A DNA stretch of 64,000 nt, from contig NZ_CP012332.1 of the NCBI RefSeq assembly GCF_001263175.1, forward strand, positions 1,733,501 through 1,797,500. Reading direction: 5' to 3'. The first letter of the stretch is position 1. The number at the start of each line of letters is the position of its first letter. Under the pieces are notes generated by a model. The model was not told the DNA's origin and did not search any database. It saw nothing but the letters and a program-made list of their open reading frames with translations. Origin of the DNA: Vulgatibacter incomptus. Its GTDB lineage: Bacteria; Myxococcota; Myxococcia; Myxococcales; Vulgatibacteraceae. This document shows, piece after piece, positions 14,691-43,576 of this stretch. The position numbers were made by a program, and so were the translations under genes.

Positions 14691-15518
14691 ATGAAGGTTC
14701 GACATCTTGCACTGACCGTGTCCCTGGCTCTCGCACCCACGGTCGCCACCGCCGCCACCGAGCTGAACGAGGAGGAGCTCAAGTTCCTCCACATCATCAA
14801 CGCCTACCGGGCCGCGAGCGGCGCTCCTTGCCTCTCGCCCAGCCCGACGATGAACGACGCCGCCGACTGGTTCAGCCAGGAGATGGGCGAGGTGGGGTTC
14901 TTCGACCACCTCGAGCCTCCCTGCGACGCCAACGGCGACAACTGTACGGGACGGGATCCCTTCGACCGGATCCGGTCGTTCGGCCACGACCGGTGGTCCA
15001 CGGCCGGCGAGAACATCGCCGCCGGCTACCCGACGGCCGAGGAGGTCTTCGAGGGCTGGAGGAACAGCCCCGGCCACAACAAGAACATGCTCGAGCCCAA
15101 GTTCACGGCGATCGGCATCGGTCGTGTAGAGGTGCCGGGCTCGAAGTACCGGATCTACTGGACCACGGACTTCTCGAACTGGGTCGACGGCCCGTGGGAC
15201 TGCGAGGGCAAGGTCGTCGGCGGCGAAGAGGGCACCGGCGGAACCGGCGGCTCCTCCGGCGGCACCGGCGGCTCGGTGAATCCGGGCACCGGCGGCACCG
15301 ACGGTGGCACGGATCCGGGCGCCGGCGGCACTGCCGGCGAGGGTTCGGGCACCGGTGGGACCGGCGGCCAGGATCCGGGAGCCGGCGGCCGCGGTGGTTC
15401 CACCTCTGGCAAGGACGACTCGAGCTCCAGCAGCGGTTGCAGCGCCGCGGGCTCTGCGCCGGCGCTCCTCGGGATCCTGGCGCCTCTCGCGCTCCTGCGT
15501 CGCCGCCGCGGCGCCTGA
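14691..15518 (+). CDS. CAP/SCP-domain secreted protein with Gly/Thr-rich linker and MYXO-CTERM-like tail
   Basis: The 275-residue product has a signal peptide (about residues 1-22). A CAP domain (residues 25-165) shows FLHIINAYRAASGAPCL, WFSQEM, ENIAAGYPTAEEVFEGW and SPGHNKNML, features of the SCP/PR-1 family. A linker of about 80 residues made of Gly-Thr-Gly repeats follows. It ends in a Cys motif, a hydrophobic helix and RRRR, as in MYXO-CTERM proteins anchored or processed at the myxobacterial surface. GGAGGA precedes the ATG by about 10 bases. A terminator follows the stop. Confidence 0.88.
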   Translation: MKVRHLALTVSLALAPTVATAATELNEEELKFLHIINAYRAASGAPCLSPSPTMNDAADWFSQEMGEVGFFDHLEPPCDANGDNCTGRDPFDRIRSFGHDRWSTAGENIAAGYPTAEEVFEGWRNSPGHNKNMLEPKFTAIGIGRVEVPGSKYRIYWTTDFSNWVDGPWDCEGKVVGGEEGTGGTGGSSGGTGGSVNPGTGGTDGGTDPGAGGTAGEGSGTGGTGGQDPGAGGRGGSTSGKDDSSSSSGCSAAGSAPALLGILAPLALLRRRRGA

Positions 15519-34109: not shown

Positions 34110-34565
34110 CTACCGCGCGCAGTCCGAGCAGACGCCGTAGAGCTCCATCTTGTGATTGGCGAGCGTGAAGCCGTGGGCCCTGGCGATCTCCGCCTGGCGC
34201 GCTTCGATGCCCTCGTCCTCGAACTCCACGATCCGTCCGCACGTCGTGCAGATGAGGTGGTCGTGGTGCTCGCCAGCGATCTCGAAGCGGGTCTGGCCGT
34301 CGCCGAAGTTCCGAGCGTTCGCGATGCCCGACTCGGTGAGGAGCTTCATGGTCCGGTAGACCGTCGCGGCGGAGACGCGGGAATCCTCCTCGCGAACCTT
34401 GGCGAGGAGCTCCTCCACGTTCAAGTGGCCGCCCGCGTTAAAGAAGGTCTCGAGGATCAGGCTGCGCTGGCGGGTGGACTTCAACCCGCGGTCGGCCATG
34501 TACCGAGCGAGGATTCGCTCGGGCTTTTCGGCCCGAACGTGTCGGGATCGGAGCTCGTCGTTCAT
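34110..34565 (-). CDS. Fur-family transcriptional regulator
   Basis: The 151-residue product has a winged helix with RGLKSTRQRSLILETFF and ATVYRTMKLLTESGIAN, then the metal-binding dimer domain with HHDHLICTTCGRIVEFED and CSDCAR (the Cys4 zinc site). It may be Fur, Zur or PerR; the sensory site cannot be distinguished by eye. ATG at 34565 follows GGAGG by about seven bases. It is divergent from the repeat-protein gene and sits beside the metal/redox block, so either could be a target. Confidence 0.92.
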   Translation of the reverse strand: MNDELRSRHVRAEKPERILARYMADRGLKSTRQRSLILETFFNAGGHLNVEELLAKVREEDSRVSAATVYRTMKLLTESGIANARNFGDGQTRFEIAGEHHDHLICTTCGRIVEFEDEGIEARQAEIARAHGFTLANHKMELYGVCSDCAR

Positions 34566-34598
34566 TGGGGCCCTCCGGTCGGGTCGTGTAAGGAACAG

Positions 34599-34614: not shown

Positions 34615-34787
34615 GAGCAACTGCAAACCGATCTCAATTCGTCCGGCATTTCGGATCGCCGATCCTCCGCGCGCGGCCCCGGACGCTCCCACGGCGCCCG
34701 CACGTCCGCGGAAGGCTTCGCACCTCGAAAAAGGTTCCACTCGAGAGCCCACGAAGAGGTCGTGGTATGACTCATTTTTTCCCGTCC

Positions 34788-34816
34788 TTGACACCAATGG
34801 CCTTGGGCCCGATGGT
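34788..34816 (+). promoter_or_regulatory. Sigma-70-like promoter for the repeat-protein gene
   Basis: TTGACA, 17-base spacer, GATGGT (A2, T3 and T6 of the -10 box match). The predicted RNA start would be only a few bases before the ATG at 34826, and no Shine-Dalgarno sequence is visible, so the message may be leaderless. Confidence 0.45.
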
Positions 34817-34825
34817 GCGCGCCCC

Positions 34826-37444
34826 ATGAGCCCCCACCGCTTCCCGCTCGATCCTTCTCTCGTCCCCCAGTTCGCCGAGGACATCCTCCCCGGCGACGAG
34901 TTCCTCGAAGACGAGACCGTTGCCCCAGCGATCGAGGAGCCGAAGCCGGAGGCCCCTCGCAAACCGCGCCGAAAGAAGGCCGCGCCCACCGGCCCGACGA
35001 GGCGGACCCGAGCCGAGGTCGAGCTTCGCCGCGAAACCCAGACGGCGGAGGCGGAAGCGAAGGCCGAGGCGGATGACGCGGATTCCGAGCCGGAGGCTCC
35101 GGCGCCCCGCCCCGGGCGGACGCCAGGCGTTCCGCAGTTCGGCCGCTTCGTCAGCGGTCCCGTGGCGAAGAGGCCGCTCCGCGAGCTCTCGCGCGACGTG
35201 CTGTCGGAGCTGATCGACGAGCTCCGCGCCAACCGTCACGCCCTGCAGTCGCGGATCGACTCGCTCTACGGCCGAGAGGACGGCAGGCCCTTCGGCCCCT
35301 CCGATCTGGGGCGCCTCCTTGCCACCCACGGCCTCGAGGAGCGCTTCACGCACGTGGAGCGCGAAGGCCTCCGGGCATTGCTCCGGCAGCAGCGCGGCTT
35401 CGAGCCCCCGATCCGCCGGGCCCTCGGCCTCGCGCCCGCGGAGCTCCGCAACCTGATCGCCAAGTACGACCTGGGCGCCGAGGCGGCGGAGCTCAAGGAG
35501 AGGACCCGCGAGGAGGCCCGCGCCGACTCGGCCCTCGCCGAGCGTCTCCTGCTGGCCTGCTCCCGCACCGAGCAGCTCCGCGACGCCGGGGTCCTCGAGG
35601 AGCTCGACGAGCGGAACCTCGACGAGCTCGACGAGGCCCTCGAGGCCGCCTCGGAGACCCCGACGACGGAGCCGTCCGTGCTCACGGAGCTCGCACGTCG
35701 TTCGCTCGGGATCGAGCCGAAGCTCTGGCGCAAGGCCCAGACCCACTACCGGCTGCTGTTCGTCGCCGCAGAGCGCCTGGGCGTTCCGCCTCCGGAAATG
35801 CCCGCGCCGACCCCGCGGTCCGGCCCCGAGGGCCGTCCGGGTTCGTTCGTCCGAGGCGATCGACGCTCCGGAGGTTCCCGGTCGGAGGGCTTCGGCCCCC
35901 CGCGCATCGGCGACCGGCCCCGTCCGGACGGCGCCCACGGCGACGGCGAGCGGCCGCGTGCCAGTGGTTTCGGGTTCAAGCGTGAGGGCGAGCGGCCGCG
36001 GACCGGCGGCTTCGGCCCCAGGCGTGACGGCATCAGGCCGCGTTCGGGCGGCTTCGGACCGCCGCGCGACGGCGACCGTCCGCGATCGAACAGCTTCGGC
36101 CCCCGGCGCGACGGCGACAGGCCGCGCTCGAACAGCTTCGGCCCCAGGCGCGACGGCGATCGGCCGCGGTCTGGCGGCTTCGGGCCTCCGCGCGACGGCG
36201 ATCGGCCCCGCTCTGGCGGCTTCGGTCCGCCGCGCGACGGCGACAGGCCGCGCTCGAACAGCTTTGGCCCGCCGCGCGACGGCGATCGGCCGCGCTCGAA
36301 CAGCTTTGGCCCGCCGCGCGACGGCGATCGGCCGCGCTCGAACAGCTTTGGCCCGCCGCGCGACGGCGATCGGCCGCGGTCCGGCGGATTCGGACCTCCG
36401 CGTGACGGCGATCGACCGCGCTCTGGCGGCTTCGGACCGCCCCGCGGCGGCGATCGACCGCGGTCCGGCGGTTTCGGACCCCCGCGCGACGGCGATCGGC
36501 CGCGCTCTGGCGGCTTCGGACCTCCGCGCGACGGCGATCGGCCGCGCTCTGGCGGCTTCGGACCTCCGCGCGTCGGCGATCGGCCGCGCTCGAACAGCTT
36601 GGGCCCGCCGCGCGACGGCGATCGGCCGCGCTCTGGCGGCTTCGGACCTCCGCGCGACGGCGATCGGCCGCGCTCCGGCGGCTTTGGACCTCCGCGCGAT
36701 GGCGATCGGCCGCGCTCGAACAGCTTCGGCCCGCCGCGCGATGGCGATCGGCCTCGCTCGAACAGCTTCGGCCCGCCGCGCGATGGCGATCGGCCGCGCT
36801 CGAACAGCTTCGGCCCGCCGCGCGATGGCGATCGGCCTCGCTCGAACAGCTTCGGCCCGCCGCGCGACGGCGATCGGCCGCGCTCGAACAGCTTCGGCCC
36901 GCCGCGCGATGGCGATCGGCCGCGCTCGAACCGCTTTGGCCCGCCGCGCGACGGCGATCGGCCGCGCTCGAGCAGCTTCGGCCCCCCGCGCGACGGCGAT
37001 CGGCCGCGCTCCAACAGCTTCGGCCCCCCGCGCGATGGCGATCGGCCGCGCTCGAACAGCTTCGGCCCGCCGCGCGATGGCGATCGGCCGCGCCCGAACC
37101 GCTTTGGTCCGCCGCGCGACGGCGATCGGCCGCGCTCGAGCAGCTTCGGTCCGCCGCGCGATGGCGATCGGCCGCGCTCGAGCAGCTTCGGTCCGCCGCG
37201 CGATGGCGATCGGCCGCGCTCGAGCAACTTCGGCCCGCCGCGCGATGGCGATCGTCCGCGCCCGAACAGCTTCGGCCCGCCGCGCGACGGCGATCGGCCG
37301 CGCTCGAACAGCTTCGGCCCCCGACGCGACGGCGACCGCCCCAATCGCGGCTTCGATCGGCCGTCTCGTCCCCGCCCGTCCGGCGATGCCCCGAGGGGGC
37401 CTGCGCGCGGCACCGATCGGCGTCCGCCGCCCCGGGGCCGCTGA
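34826..37444 (+). CDS. Protein with about 34 tandem Arg/Phe 14-residue repeats, unknown function
   Basis: The 872-residue product has an acidic/Pro/Lys leader (1-100) and a helical domain (about 110-330: SRDVLSELIDELRANRHALQ, LDERNLDELDEALEAAS). From about 346 to 850 runs a tandem array of the 14-mer SNSFGPPRDGDRPR or SGGFGPPRDGDRPR. Each unit carries one Phe, three Arg and two Asp, in the style of RNA-binding or phase-separating low-complexity tails. The C-terminus is Arg/Pro-rich. No family recognised. It lies divergent from Fur, and FmdB follows 61 bases later. Confidence 0.85.
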   Translation: MSPHRFPLDPSLVPQFAEDILPGDEFLEDETVAPAIEEPKPEAPRKPRRKKAAPTGPTRRTRAEVELRRETQTAEAEAKAEADDADSEPEAPAPRPGRTPGVPQFGRFVSGPVAKRPLRELSRDVLSELIDELRANRHALQSRIDSLYGREDGRPFGPSDLGRLLATHGLEERFTHVEREGLRALLRQQRGFEPPIRRALGLAPAELRNLIAKYDLGAEAAELKERTREEARADSALAERLLLACSRTEQLRDAGVLEELDERNLDELDEALEAASETPTTEPSVLTELARRSLGIEPKLWRKAQTHYRLLFVAAERLGVPPPEMPAPTPRSGPEGRPGSFVRGDRRSGGSRSEGFGPPRIGDRPRPDGAHGDGERPRASGFGFKREGERPRTGGFGPRRDGIRPRSGGFGPPRDGDRPRSNSFGPRRDGDRPRSNSFGPRRDGDRPRSGGFGPPRDGDRPRSGGFGPPRDGDRPRSNSFGPPRDGDRPRSNSFGPPRDGDRPRSNSFGPPRDGDRPRSGGFGPPRDGDRPRSGGFGPPRGGDRPRSGGFGPPRDGDRPRSGGFGPPRDGDRPRSGGFGPPRVGDRPRSNSLGPPRDGDRPRSGGFGPPRDGDRPRSGGFGPPRDGDRPRSNSFGPPRDGDRPRSNSFGPPRDGDRPRSNSFGPPRDGDRPRSNSFGPPRDGDRPRSNSFGPPRDGDRPRSNRFGPPRDGDRPRSSSFGPPRDGDRPRSNSFGPPRDGDRPRSNSFGPPRDGDRPRPNRFGPPRDGDRPRSSSFGPPRDGDRPRSSSFGPPRDGDRPRSSNFGPPRDGDRPRPNSFGPPRDGDRPRSNSFGPRRDGDRPNRGFDRPSRPRPSGDAPRGPARGTDRRPPPRGR
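35866..37340 (+). repeat. 42-bp tandem repeat array inside the coding region
   Basis: About 34 units of 42 bp, in two main protein forms (SGGF and SNSF) with rarer SSSF, PNRF, SNRF and SSNF variants. The first three or four units are diverged; later ones are near-identical apart from silent C/T and GAC/GAT changes. The unit is a multiple of three, so copy number can change without frameshift. No spacers separate units, so it is not CRISPR. Confidence 0.95.
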
Positions 37445-37504
37445 GGCCACCATCGGCCGTGTCGCTTGAACGACGAAGGCCTCTCGATTAGATCAGCCCA
37501 CGAC

Positions 37505-37840
37505 ATGCCCATCTACGAATACCAGTGTGCGACGTGCGGGGGCCTCACCGAGGTCCTCCAGAAGGTCTCGGACCCTGCCCCCGAGAGCTGCCCCGCCTGT
37601 GGCGGCGCCTCCACCCTCGAGAAGGTCGTGAGCCGCTCCAGCTTCCAGCTCAAGGGCGGCGGCTGGTACGCCGACCTCTACAGCTCCACCTCGAAGGGCG
37701 ACGCGTCCAAGTCGAGCGGCGGCTCGTCCGCCTCGGCGAGCGGCGGCTCGTCCGCTCCAGCGAGCGGCAGCTCGTCCGCCTCGTCGAGCGGATCATCCTC
37801 CTCCACGAGCACGCCCACCACGTCGACCGCCACCAAGTAG
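37505..37840 (+). CDS. FmdB-family zinc-ribbon protein with Ser-rich tail
   Basis: The 111-residue protein begins MPIYEYQCATCGGLTEVLQK and has CPACGG, two CxxC pairs that would bind zinc, exactly the FmdB layout. From about residue 70 the sequence is almost only Ser, Ala, Gly and Thr, a long disordered tail. FmdB proteins are often linked to transcription or formamidase regulation, but no target is known here. The ATG at 37505 matches the family start. Confidence 0.9.
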   Translation: MPIYEYQCATCGGLTEVLQKVSDPAPESCPACGGASTLEKVVSRSSFQLKGGGWYADLYSSTSKGDASKSSGGSSASASGGSSAPASGSSSASSSGSSSSTSTPTTSTATK

Positions 37841-41287: not shown

Positions 41288-43576
41288 CTACCGCGGATCG
41301 CTCCCGGTGGGCGACTCCCCTTCCCCCTGGCCTTCCCCCGGGCCTTCCCCCGGGGCTTCCCCCGGGGCTTCGGCAAGCGCTCCTTCGATGCGATCGACGA
41401 CGTCCATCGCCGAGGCCCACTCGGAGCCGGACGCCGCCGAGAACGCCGCCGCCTCCGGTTCGGCGAAGGCGGGCTCCAGGAGCCGGGCCGCGACCTTGTC
41501 CTGCTCGACCTTGCGGTGCATGCGCGGGCCGTCCGCCGTGATCATCGCCCGGCGCTCGCGGACCCGCTCCTTGTACCGACGGATGGCGCCCGAGAGGATC
41601 TCGCCGATCAGCGTCCGGTAATCCATGCCCGCCGCCTGCGAGATCAGCACCAGATCGCTCCACCCCGGCGTCAGCCCCGGCAGCGGGTTGCACTCCAGGA
41701 AGTAGATCCGCCCGTGGTCGTCCATGCGGAAGTCGATCCGCGCCACGTCGCGGCAGCCCAGCGCCACGAACGCGTCCCGGGCGCACTCCTCGAGCTTGCG
41801 GCGGGTCTTGTCGTCCACCTGCGCCGGCGTGTCGTAGCGGATCCGGGCGTCCCAATCCTGCTTCATCTCGAAGCTGTAGATCGGGTTCTTCATCGATTTG
41901 TCGAGGAAGACGATCTCCATCGGCGGCAGGGCCCGGGGCCGCCGCTCGCCGAGCAGGCCCACCGTGAACTCACGGCCCAGGATGTACTCCTCCACGAGGA
42001 CGTGCTGGCGGTACTTGGCCGCCAGCTCCCGCGCCACCTCGCGCAGCTCCGCCTCGGTGTCGCAGACGCTCTTGGAGATCACGCCCTTGGAGGAGCCCTC
42101 GGCCACCGGCTTGACCATCAGGGGCCAGCGCAGATCCCGCGGCAGCTTCTCCTTCCCCGTCTGCATCAGGAAGTACTGGGGCGTGAGGATCCCGTGGGTG
42201 CGGACCATCCGCTTGGCGAGGCCCTTGTCGAGGGTGATCGAGAGGGCGGCGGGATCGCTGCCGGTGTAGGGGATGTCGAGGAGCTCGAGGAGCGCGGGGA
42301 CCTGCGACTCCCGGTTCCGGCCCTTCAGGCCCTCGGCGATGTTGAAGACGACGTCCACCTGGGAGCTCGCGAGGATCGTCGGGAGCTCCGACGTGGCCTC
42401 GAGATCCACCACCTCGTGCCCATAGGAGGCGATGGCCTCGCGGATCGCCTGGAGGGTCTTGGGCGAGTCGTACTCGGCCTCGGAGTCGCTCTGCCCGTCC
42501 AGCGTGGGCGTGACCCGCTTCACGTTGAAGGCGAAGCCGACCTTGAGGGGCCCGACCTTGCGCGGCTTCGCCTTGGGCCTGCCGGAGTCCTTGATGGCGT
42601 AGCGCTTCGTGGCGCTCTTGATCACCGCGTCGAGCACGCCGTCGAAGTGCAGGCCCTCGAGGGCCGCCGCCGCGAAGAGCGACGAGCCGGGCTCCAGCGA
42701 AGGGAGCAGGTTGATCTCGAGGAGGTGGACCGCCCCGTCCGGCGTGACCCGGAAGTCGACGCTGCCCAGGTCGCGGCAGTCGAGGATCTCGAAGGCGCGC
42801 CGGGCCGCGAGGCGGACGGCCTCCGCCACCGATCGCCCGAGCTCCGCCGGCCGCCGCGTGAGCGCGCTCCGCCGATTCCCGGACTTGGTCTCGTAGTCGA
42901 AGATCGGGTAGCGGCGATCCGCCTCGGCGCCGACGACGTACTCGATCGGCGTGAGGATCCCCTTGCCCGGCCCGTCGGCCAGGGCGCCGAGGTAGGGGAC
43001 GGAGATGTCCCTCCCCGGGACGTACTGCTCCACGATCAGGCCCGCCGGGTAGCGCCGGAGCTGCTCGGCCACGAAGGCGGGCAGCCGCGCGGGGTCCTCG
43101 ATCACGGAGTCCTGGCCGATCCCCTTGGAGGAGCCCTCGAAGTTCGGCTTCACGATCACCGGGAACGGGAGCGAGCGGACGTCGAGGCGCTCGAGCCTGT
43201 CGACGAACTGCCAGCGGGGCGTCACGAGGCCCTGCTGCGCGAAGATCATCTTCGCGAGCTGCTTGTCCTGGCTGACGGTGAGCGCGTAGGAGTCGCTGCC
43301 CGTGTAGGGCATGCCGAGCTCCTCGAAGAGCGCCGGGAAGAACGCCTCCCGGAACCGGCCACGCCTCCCTTCGGCGGCGTTGAAGATCAGGTCCGGCGAG
43401 TACGCCTCGAGGCGGGCGACGGTCCGGCTGGCAGGCCCCGAGACCTCGATCCGCTCCACGCGGTGTCCCAGCCGTTCGAGGGCGCCCGCGAGGGCGTCCA
43501 CCGTGTCCTTCGAGTCAAACTCCGCCTCGTCCTCCGAGTCCGAGAGGCGGAGGTTGTGCGTCAGCGCGATGCGCAT
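41288..43576 (-). CDS. Double ATP-grasp (D-Ala-D-Ala-ligase-like) fusion protein
   Basis: The 762-residue protein holds two homologous ATP-grasp units: residues 1-330 and 345-690. Each starts with a DSE(D)EAE(F/Y)DS motif. Each contains PYTGSD and KPxxEGSSKG, and ends in LLEINLLPSLEPGSS or LECNPLPGLTPGWSD. A basic linker (PKAKPRK) joins them. The tail of about 80 residues ends in acidic Gly/Pro/Glu repeats. Such enzymes join amino-acid carboxylates to amines; the product is unknown. Start: ATG 43576. Confidence 0.88.
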   Translation of the reverse strand: MRIALTHNLRLSDSEDEAEFDSKDTVDALAGALERLGHRVERIEVSGPASRTVARLEAYSPDLIFNAAEGRRGRFREAFFPALFEELGMPYTGSDSYALTVSQDKQLAKMIFAQQGLVTPRWQFVDRLERLDVRSLPFPVIVKPNFEGSSKGIGQDSVIEDPARLPAFVAEQLRRYPAGLIVEQYVPGRDISVPYLGALADGPGKGILTPIEYVVGAEADRRYPIFDYETKSGNRRSALTRRPAELGRSVAEAVRLAARRAFEILDCRDLGSVDFRVTPDGAVHLLEINLLPSLEPGSSLFAAAALEGLHFDGVLDAVIKSATKRYAIKDSGRPKAKPRKVGPLKVGFAFNVKRVTPTLDGQSDSEAEYDSPKTLQAIREAIASYGHEVVDLEATSELPTILASSQVDVVFNIAEGLKGRNRESQVPALLELLDIPYTGSDPAALSITLDKGLAKRMVRTHGILTPQYFLMQTGKEKLPRDLRWPLMVKPVAEGSSKGVISKSVCDTEAELREVARELAAKYRQHVLVEEYILGREFTVGLLGERRPRALPPMEIVFLDKSMKNPIYSFEMKQDWDARIRYDTPAQVDDKTRRKLEECARDAFVALGCRDVARIDFRMDDHGRIYFLECNPLPGLTPGWSDLVLISQAAGMDYRTLIGEILSGAIRRYKERVRERRAMITADGPRMHRKVEQDKVAARLLEPAFAEPEAAAFSAASGSEWASAMDVVDRIEGALAEAPGEAPGEGPGEGQGEGESPTGSDPR

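What the first reader, a model, noticed from the sequence alone, without database searches (positions are those of the whole stretch)
34826..37444. A protein with about 34 Arg/Phe tandem 14-mers, possibly an RNA-binding or condensate-forming tail
A helical N-terminal domain of no known family carries a tail in which each 14-residue unit has one Phe, three Arg and two Asp (net +1). This evenly spaced sticker pattern is that of RGG/RF-type low-complexity regions. The array alternates two forms (SGGF, SNSF) in runs, suggesting recent local duplication. It lies between Fur and an FmdB zinc ribbon. Function is unknown.
Basis: partly seen in the sequence, partly recalled or inferred. Interest (0 to 1): 0.62.

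Follow-up and report, generated by a model that had tools for sequence, protein, structure and literature searches.

The report
Myxobacterial HTH protein with arginine-repeat tail
This gene makes a member of an unstudied but conserved family of myxobacterial proteins with a probable DNA-binding fold, and here it carries an unusually long floppy tail of 33-34 near-identical arginine-rich units that probably grips DNA or RNA; related species carry different, independently multiplied arginine repeats at the same place.

Summary
The repeat is real. ORF 34826-37444 (+, 872 aa) carries 34 copies of the motif, 33 in strict 14-residue register, consensus FGPPRDGDRPRSNS. Selection has kept the amino acids: pN/pS is 0.26, the lowest of six frames, and 21 distinct variants are synonymous against 10.5 expected. 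The "domain of no known family" belongs to a conserved, usually single-copy myxobacterial family: an all-helical ~205-residue core (pLDDT 96, no convincing PDB fold match) holding a Fis/NtrC-type helix-turn-helix. Its neighbourhood, Fur <- -> X -> FmdB, is conserved across most of the order. The tail is predicted disordered. All 18 examined members from two families have Arg/Gly/Pro tails, but the repeat unit is lineage-specific (period 14, 6, 5 or 10) while one Arg every 2.7-5 residues is kept. Tail length changes fast (275 against 189 aa with 94% identical cores). Other families lack the tail, so the core can work without it. Most likely: a nucleic-acid-binding protein whose Arg-rich tail is an evolvable multivalent binding arm. 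DNA versus RNA, and condensation, are untested. New variant of a known kind.

The parts
34826..37444 (+). whole gene, 872 aa, called X below
34826..35158 (+). residues 1-111, charged Pro/Ala/Glu-rich linker-like stretch with a basic patch (KPRRKKAAP); the ~90-residue N-terminal domain (DFCRRA...) of relatives is missing
35159..35791 (+). residues 112-322, conserved all-helical core (13 helices, pLDDT 96)
35342..35485 (+). residues 173-220, Fis/NtrC-type helix-turn-helix inside the core
35792..35968 (+). junction and irregular proto-repeats (GFGPPRIGDRPRPDGAHGDGERPRASG)
35969..37354 (+). array of 33 units of 14 residues (42 bp) in register, consensus FGPPRDGDRPRSNS
37355..37444 (+). Arg/Pro/Gly-rich C-terminal end
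37505..37840 (+). FmdB-type zinc ribbon (PF09723) with Ser/Gly-rich tail, 61 nt downstream; conserved partner gene
34110..34568 (-). Fur-family regulator (PF01475), divergent; conserved neighbour

Best explanation
X is a nucleic-acid-binding accessory protein of myxobacteria. Its conserved helical core with a Fis-type HTH contacts DNA (inferred from homology) or a nucleoprotein partner. Its C-terminal tail is a disordered polycation, net about +52 over 550 residues, in which an Arg every 4-5 residues and a Phe every 14 give many weak contacts to nucleic-acid phosphates and bases. The tail raises affinity and bridges or clusters nucleic acid, possibly forming condensates. It grows and shrinks by in-frame duplication of whole units while selection keeps the residues of each unit. 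SHOWN (sequence and computation): repeat, constraint, HTH homology, predicted disorder, conserved neighbours, lineage-specific repeats. INFERRED: nucleic-acid binding, DNA versus RNA, bridging. SPECULATIVE: phase separation, and a functional link to FmdB or Fur.
For: HTH: the family profile positions 62-114 hit the C-terminal HTH of NtrC-like regulators at E about 1e-7 to 1e-6 (one such hit read as an FHA/sigma-54 activator); Pfam HTH_8 hits 4 of 23 members, best 1.2e-4, and hits G017 at 0.0027; solved NtrC-type DNA-binding domains 2m8g and 1ntc are top sequence matches at the same positions, though weak, E 0.05. Core is a confident fold, pLDDT 96. Tail disordered in the model, pLDDT about 45, no secondary structure. 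Protein-level constraint: pN/pS 0.26, 21 synonymous distinct variants against 10.5 under a spectrum-matched null, no such value in 5000 draws. Property kept while sequence changes: 18 of 18 members of families f1 and f3 have Arg 20-37% tails almost without Lys, mean Arg spacing 2.7-5.0, with different periods. Precedent: Arg-containing REER repeats of P. aeruginosa RNase E vary in number between species and contribute to RNA binding and foci (PMC11964227); an IDR of B. thetaiotaomicron Rho condenses with RNA (PMC13269538).
Against: No binding data. The core itself is slightly acidic overall (net -5), and single-sequence Pfam scans of the window protein find no HTH. Myxococcaceae-like and other homologues lack the tail. 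A 70% GC genome favours Arg/Gly/Pro/Ala codons, so basic low-complexity tails can arise easily. No other locus of this genome carries this repeat.
Confidence: 0.55

Rival explanations
1. RNA-first: X works in RNA metabolism or translation; the Arg/Phe tail binds RNA and scaffolds an RNP body, and the core is a protein-protein or RNA-binding helical domain that only descends from an HTH.
For: Arg-rich variable repeats in bacterial RNase E bind RNA and drive foci (PMC11964227); the tail resembles such regions in composition; a zinc ribbon protein is the conserved partner gene.
Against: No RNA-binding domain found; core shows DNA-binding HTH homology; neighbours are not RNA-metabolism genes.
Confidence: 0.25
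2. The tail is a nearly neutral by-product of slippage in GC-rich DNA, tolerated at the C-terminus of a protein whose core does the work.
For: Family members without a tail exist in most lineages; tail length varies fast between near relatives; neighbouring units are the most alike.
Against: Non-synonymous changes are depleted among units; 33 units kept in frame; Arg spacing kept in all 18 tailed members. Concerted duplication of a conserved unit could explain part of the depletion.
Confidence: 0.17
3. The tail is a protein-binding or assembly module (for example recruiting the FmdB partner or self-associating), not a nucleic-acid binder.
For: FmdB follows X at 2-97 nt in all f7 loci with sequence, in 12 of 15 testable f3 loci, and in the window; mixed-charge Arg/Asp units can self-associate (general knowledge).
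Against: FmdB pairing is equally strict in tail-less families, so the tail is not needed for it.
Confidence: 0.1

Closest known systems
Fis/NtrC C-terminal HTH (Pfam HTH_8, PF02954)
   Same: Residues 173-220 align with it through the family profile
   Different: Here it is buried in a ~205-residue helical core with further helices on both sides; no receiver, AAA+ or FHA domain; the sub-threshold Pfam score means it is a divergent relative
P. aeruginosa RNase E REER-repeats (PMC11964227)
   Same: Arg-containing tandem repeats in a disordered region, copy number varies between species
   Different: Not homologous; different host protein; unit REER, not FGPPRDGDRPRSNS; RNA binding shown there, untested here
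B. thetaiotaomicron Rho IDR (PMC13269538)
   Same: A disordered extension added to a conserved nucleic-acid protein in some lineages only
   Different: An internal K/E-rich IDR on an RNA helicase, not a C-terminal Arg/Phe repeat
RGG/RG-motif regions of eukaryotic RNA-binding proteins
   Same: Arg with Gly and aromatic residues at regular spacing in a disordered chain
   Different: No RGG in the unit; two Asp per unit; Pro-rich; no known arginine methylation context (from general knowledge)

Membership tests
Conserved myxobacterial core family (named here; X of the Fur-X-FmdB locus) | ~205-residue helical core found by profile | tested here: met
   E 8e-55 in the window genome, 7e-54 in G144, single strong copy per genome
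Conserved myxobacterial core family (named here; X of the Fur-X-FmdB locus) | Fur divergent upstream and FmdB downstream | tested here: met
   holds in the window, absent in f11 and f5
Conserved myxobacterial core family (named here; X of the Fur-X-FmdB locus) | N-terminal DFCRRA domain | tested here: not met
   Missing in the window protein, present in G144 and in most f7 and f3 members; also missing in G127, so treated as optional
Fis/NtrC HTH (PF02954) | Pfam gathering score | tested here: not met
   No hit in the window protein; best family members stay below or near the cut-off (G017: 17.8 bits against 22)
Fis/NtrC HTH (PF02954) | Profile-level homology to the HTH | tested here: met
Fis/NtrC HTH (PF02954) | DNA binding | not testable with these tools
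   needs EMSA or ChIP
RGG/RG-motif proteins | Clustered RGG or RG repeats | tested here: not met
   Unit is FGPPRDGDRPRSNS; no RGG in the consensus
Condensate-forming bacterial IDR proteins | Disordered multivalent region | tested here: met
   pLDDT about 45, no secondary structure over the 201 tail residues modelled; 33 units
Condensate-forming bacterial IDR proteins | Condensation in vitro or in cells | not testable with these tools
   experiment needed
Any solved fold (core) | Fold match in the PDB | tested here: inconclusive
   Foldseek best E 1.7; best Z 5.1 over 91 residues

The most novel reading that the evidence does not exclude
A previously undescribed family of myxobacterial chromatin or RNP proteins in which condensation or DNA bridging is set by an Arg-repeat tail that each lineage has amplified on its own from different units, so that repeat number acts as an evolvable dial on a conserved HTH core.
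Probability: 0.25. Interest if true: 0.72.

Novelty: new variant of a known kind. Interest (0 to 1): 0.5.

Why it matters
Bacterial examples of natural, countable, near-identical Arg/Phe repeats on a conserved folded core are few. This family gives tail-less, short-tailed and 33-unit members at the same locus with the same neighbours, plus several unrelated repeat units at the same position. That is a ready comparison for asking which property of an arginine-rich disordered tail selection keeps (spacing, charge, aromatic content or length). It also puts a function question on a conserved but unannotated Fur-X-FmdB locus of myxobacteria.

Tried and rejected
Pfam, NCBIfam and PADLOC on the window protein: nothing (the only NCBIfam row, FlhF at E 0.11, is noise). 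Foldseek and VIA-align against the PDB: no convincing match; RecX at Z 4.1 and 14-3-3 or proteasome rows are within what helical bundles give by chance. Search for the repeat unit elsewhere in this genome: only this gene; low-identity hits in other genomes are compositional. Coding in another frame: several long alternative ORFs exist (for example 893 aa on the minus strand) because a 42-bp period keeps frames open, but codon-position GC and pN/pS favour the + frame. One origin of the tail at the base of f1+f3 against two origins cannot be decided: the tree needs two changes, but one clade is not rejected (p-AU 0.53). No Rfam hit in the window; no sigma-70-type promoter or intrinsic terminator near the gene, which says little in a 70% GC genome. 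Literature: nothing found on this family; one hit only for FmdB with zinc ribbon.

Full report
OBSERVATION. The ORF at 34826-37444 (+) encodes 872 residues. From residue ~330 to the end the protein is Arg 125, Pro 111, Gly 107, Asp 68, Ser 59, Phe 36 of 543. The motif recurs 34 times; after the first 26-residue interval every interval is 14. TRF gives a 42-bp unit at 36009-37335 with no indels. The 32 units compared comprise 29 different DNA sequences, and neighbours are more alike than chance, so the array grew by local duplication and then diverged.

CODING AND CONSTRAINT. Among units pN/pS is 0.26 in the annotated frame against 0.38-3.0 in the other five. Placing the same substitution spectrum at random on the consensus gives 10.5 synonymous distinct variants on average; 21 are seen, and none of 5000 draws reached that. 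This is what selection on the amino-acid sequence of the tail would leave. Caveat: units are not independent lineages, and codon usage in a GC-rich genome may add to third-position change.

THE FOLDED PART. Residues 1-111 are a charged linker-like stretch. Residues 112-322 are a conserved core: a profile of 23 members finds it in nearly all genomes of the order with complete assemblies, as one strong copy per genome (E 1e-78 to 1e-13), and in a second group of the phylum, f11 (E about 1e-34 to 1e-44). The tally of 142 of 145 genomes includes weak hits that are only the HTH of other regulators, so it overstates the family. AlphaFold gives mean pLDDT 96 and 13 helices. No solved structure matches well.

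HTH. The secondary hits of the profile fall on positions 62-114 only; the one read out (G043) is the extreme C-terminus of an FHA/sigma-54 activator of the NtrC type...LLALLREHQGNVSQIAQALGTSRAQVHRLFKRHGL. Pfam HTH_8 is the family most often hit by members (4 of 23, best 1.2e-4), and NtrC-type domains 2m8g and 1ntc are weak sequence matches at the same place. So the core descends from or contains a Fis-type HTH; DNA binding is an inference.

NEIGHBOURHOOD. Fur lies divergent upstream in the window, G144, G138, the f7, f3 and f2 loci with enough sequence; FmdB follows on the same strand at 2-97 nt in the f7 loci, at 7-54 nt in 12 of 15 testable f3 loci, and at 61 nt in the window; in G144 it is convergent at 348 nt. 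Fur, FmdB (PF09723), MFS and AI-2E-type transporter identities come from Pfam. Outside the order (f11) the locus differs: no FmdB or Fur beside it, but the proteins carry a small zinc-knuckle-like motif C-x4-C-x7-C-x2-H before the core.

ARCHITECTURE AND TAIL EVOLUTION. Typical members are N-domain, linker, core. The window protein has lost the ~90-residue N-domain. Tails: all 16 f3 members and both f1 members examined have a basic tail, none of the f7, f8, f5, f2 and f11 members does. In G144, the nearest relative (37-38% identity), the tail is 33 residues ending DDDRPRRFGRPRSWRDRTGRSR, which looks like a single precursor of the unit (interpretation). In f3 the units differ: GRPGGF and GPGPRT types with period 6, GGRPS with period 5, PRPGA with period 5/10, and several aperiodic tails. 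Common to all is Arg spacing of 2.7-5.0 residues and near absence of Lys. Two species with 94% identical cores have tails of 275 and 189 residues. So composition and Arg spacing persist while the sequence and length of the repeat turn over.

TREE. On the core tree f1 and f3 are each one clade; the tail label needs two changes, but a joint f1+f3 clade is not rejected (p-AU 0.53), so one origin followed by separate amplification is as good as two origins.

MECHANISM. The tail is modelled as disordered (pLDDT about 45) and carries about +52 net charge. Arg-rich variable repeats in P. aeruginosa RNase E contribute to RNA binding and focus formation (PMC11964227), and a lineage-specific IDR of Bacteroides Rho drives RNA-dependent condensation (PMC13269538). 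By analogy I take X to be a nucleic-acid-binding protein whose core gives placement and whose tail gives multivalent, length-tunable attachment. That the ligand is DNA follows only from the HTH; RNA remains open. Condensation is a possibility, not a finding.

ORGANISM. The genome is one contig of 4,350,553 bases with no other genome of its genus held. I believe it is Vulgatibacter incomptus (size and order fit, and it is described as a small-genome exception among myxobacteria, PMC12093494), f3 Anaeromyxobacteraceae and f7 Myxococcaceae; these names are from memory and were not verified by a sequence match. No second strain was available, so polymorphism in this species is untested, and the copy number rests on one assembly.

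Noticed in passing
L101-L109 (f11 homologues): The same core is fused to a small zinc-knuckle-like motif C-x4-C-x7-C-x2-H (CSEPGCDRPARSRGLCSLHYQR; Pfam Zf_WRKY19 sub-threshold, E 0.0007) where FmdB is not a neighbour; possibly an analogous zinc partner in cis.
   Followed up: partly
window 34772-37453 (-), 35746-37512 (-), 35958-37469 (+): Long overlapping ORFs of 893, 588 and 503 aa in other frames, kept open by the 42-bp period; a risk of misannotation, not evidence of genes.
   Followed up: yes
window 41288-43576 (-): A 762-aa protein that looks like two fused D-Ala-D-Ala-ligase/ATP-grasp-like halves (by eye) ends in a Gly/Glu/Pro repeat (APGEAPGEGPGEGQGEGE), coded by the 12-bp array at 41319-41371.
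   Followed up: no
window 15235-15389: Imperfect Gly/Ser/Thr-type tandem repeat DNA (period 21-33) found by TRF.
   Followed up: no
L047 (G138) and L052, L055, L060 (G038, G010, G012): Some relatives carry an additional Fis-like HTH segment before the core (for example LERTAKKLGLSTEALEQRLKRLSL), suggesting HTH duplication within the family.
   Followed up: no
window 37713-37810: The FmdB protein itself ends in a Ser/Gly/Ala tandem repeat (24-bp unit).
   Followed up: no
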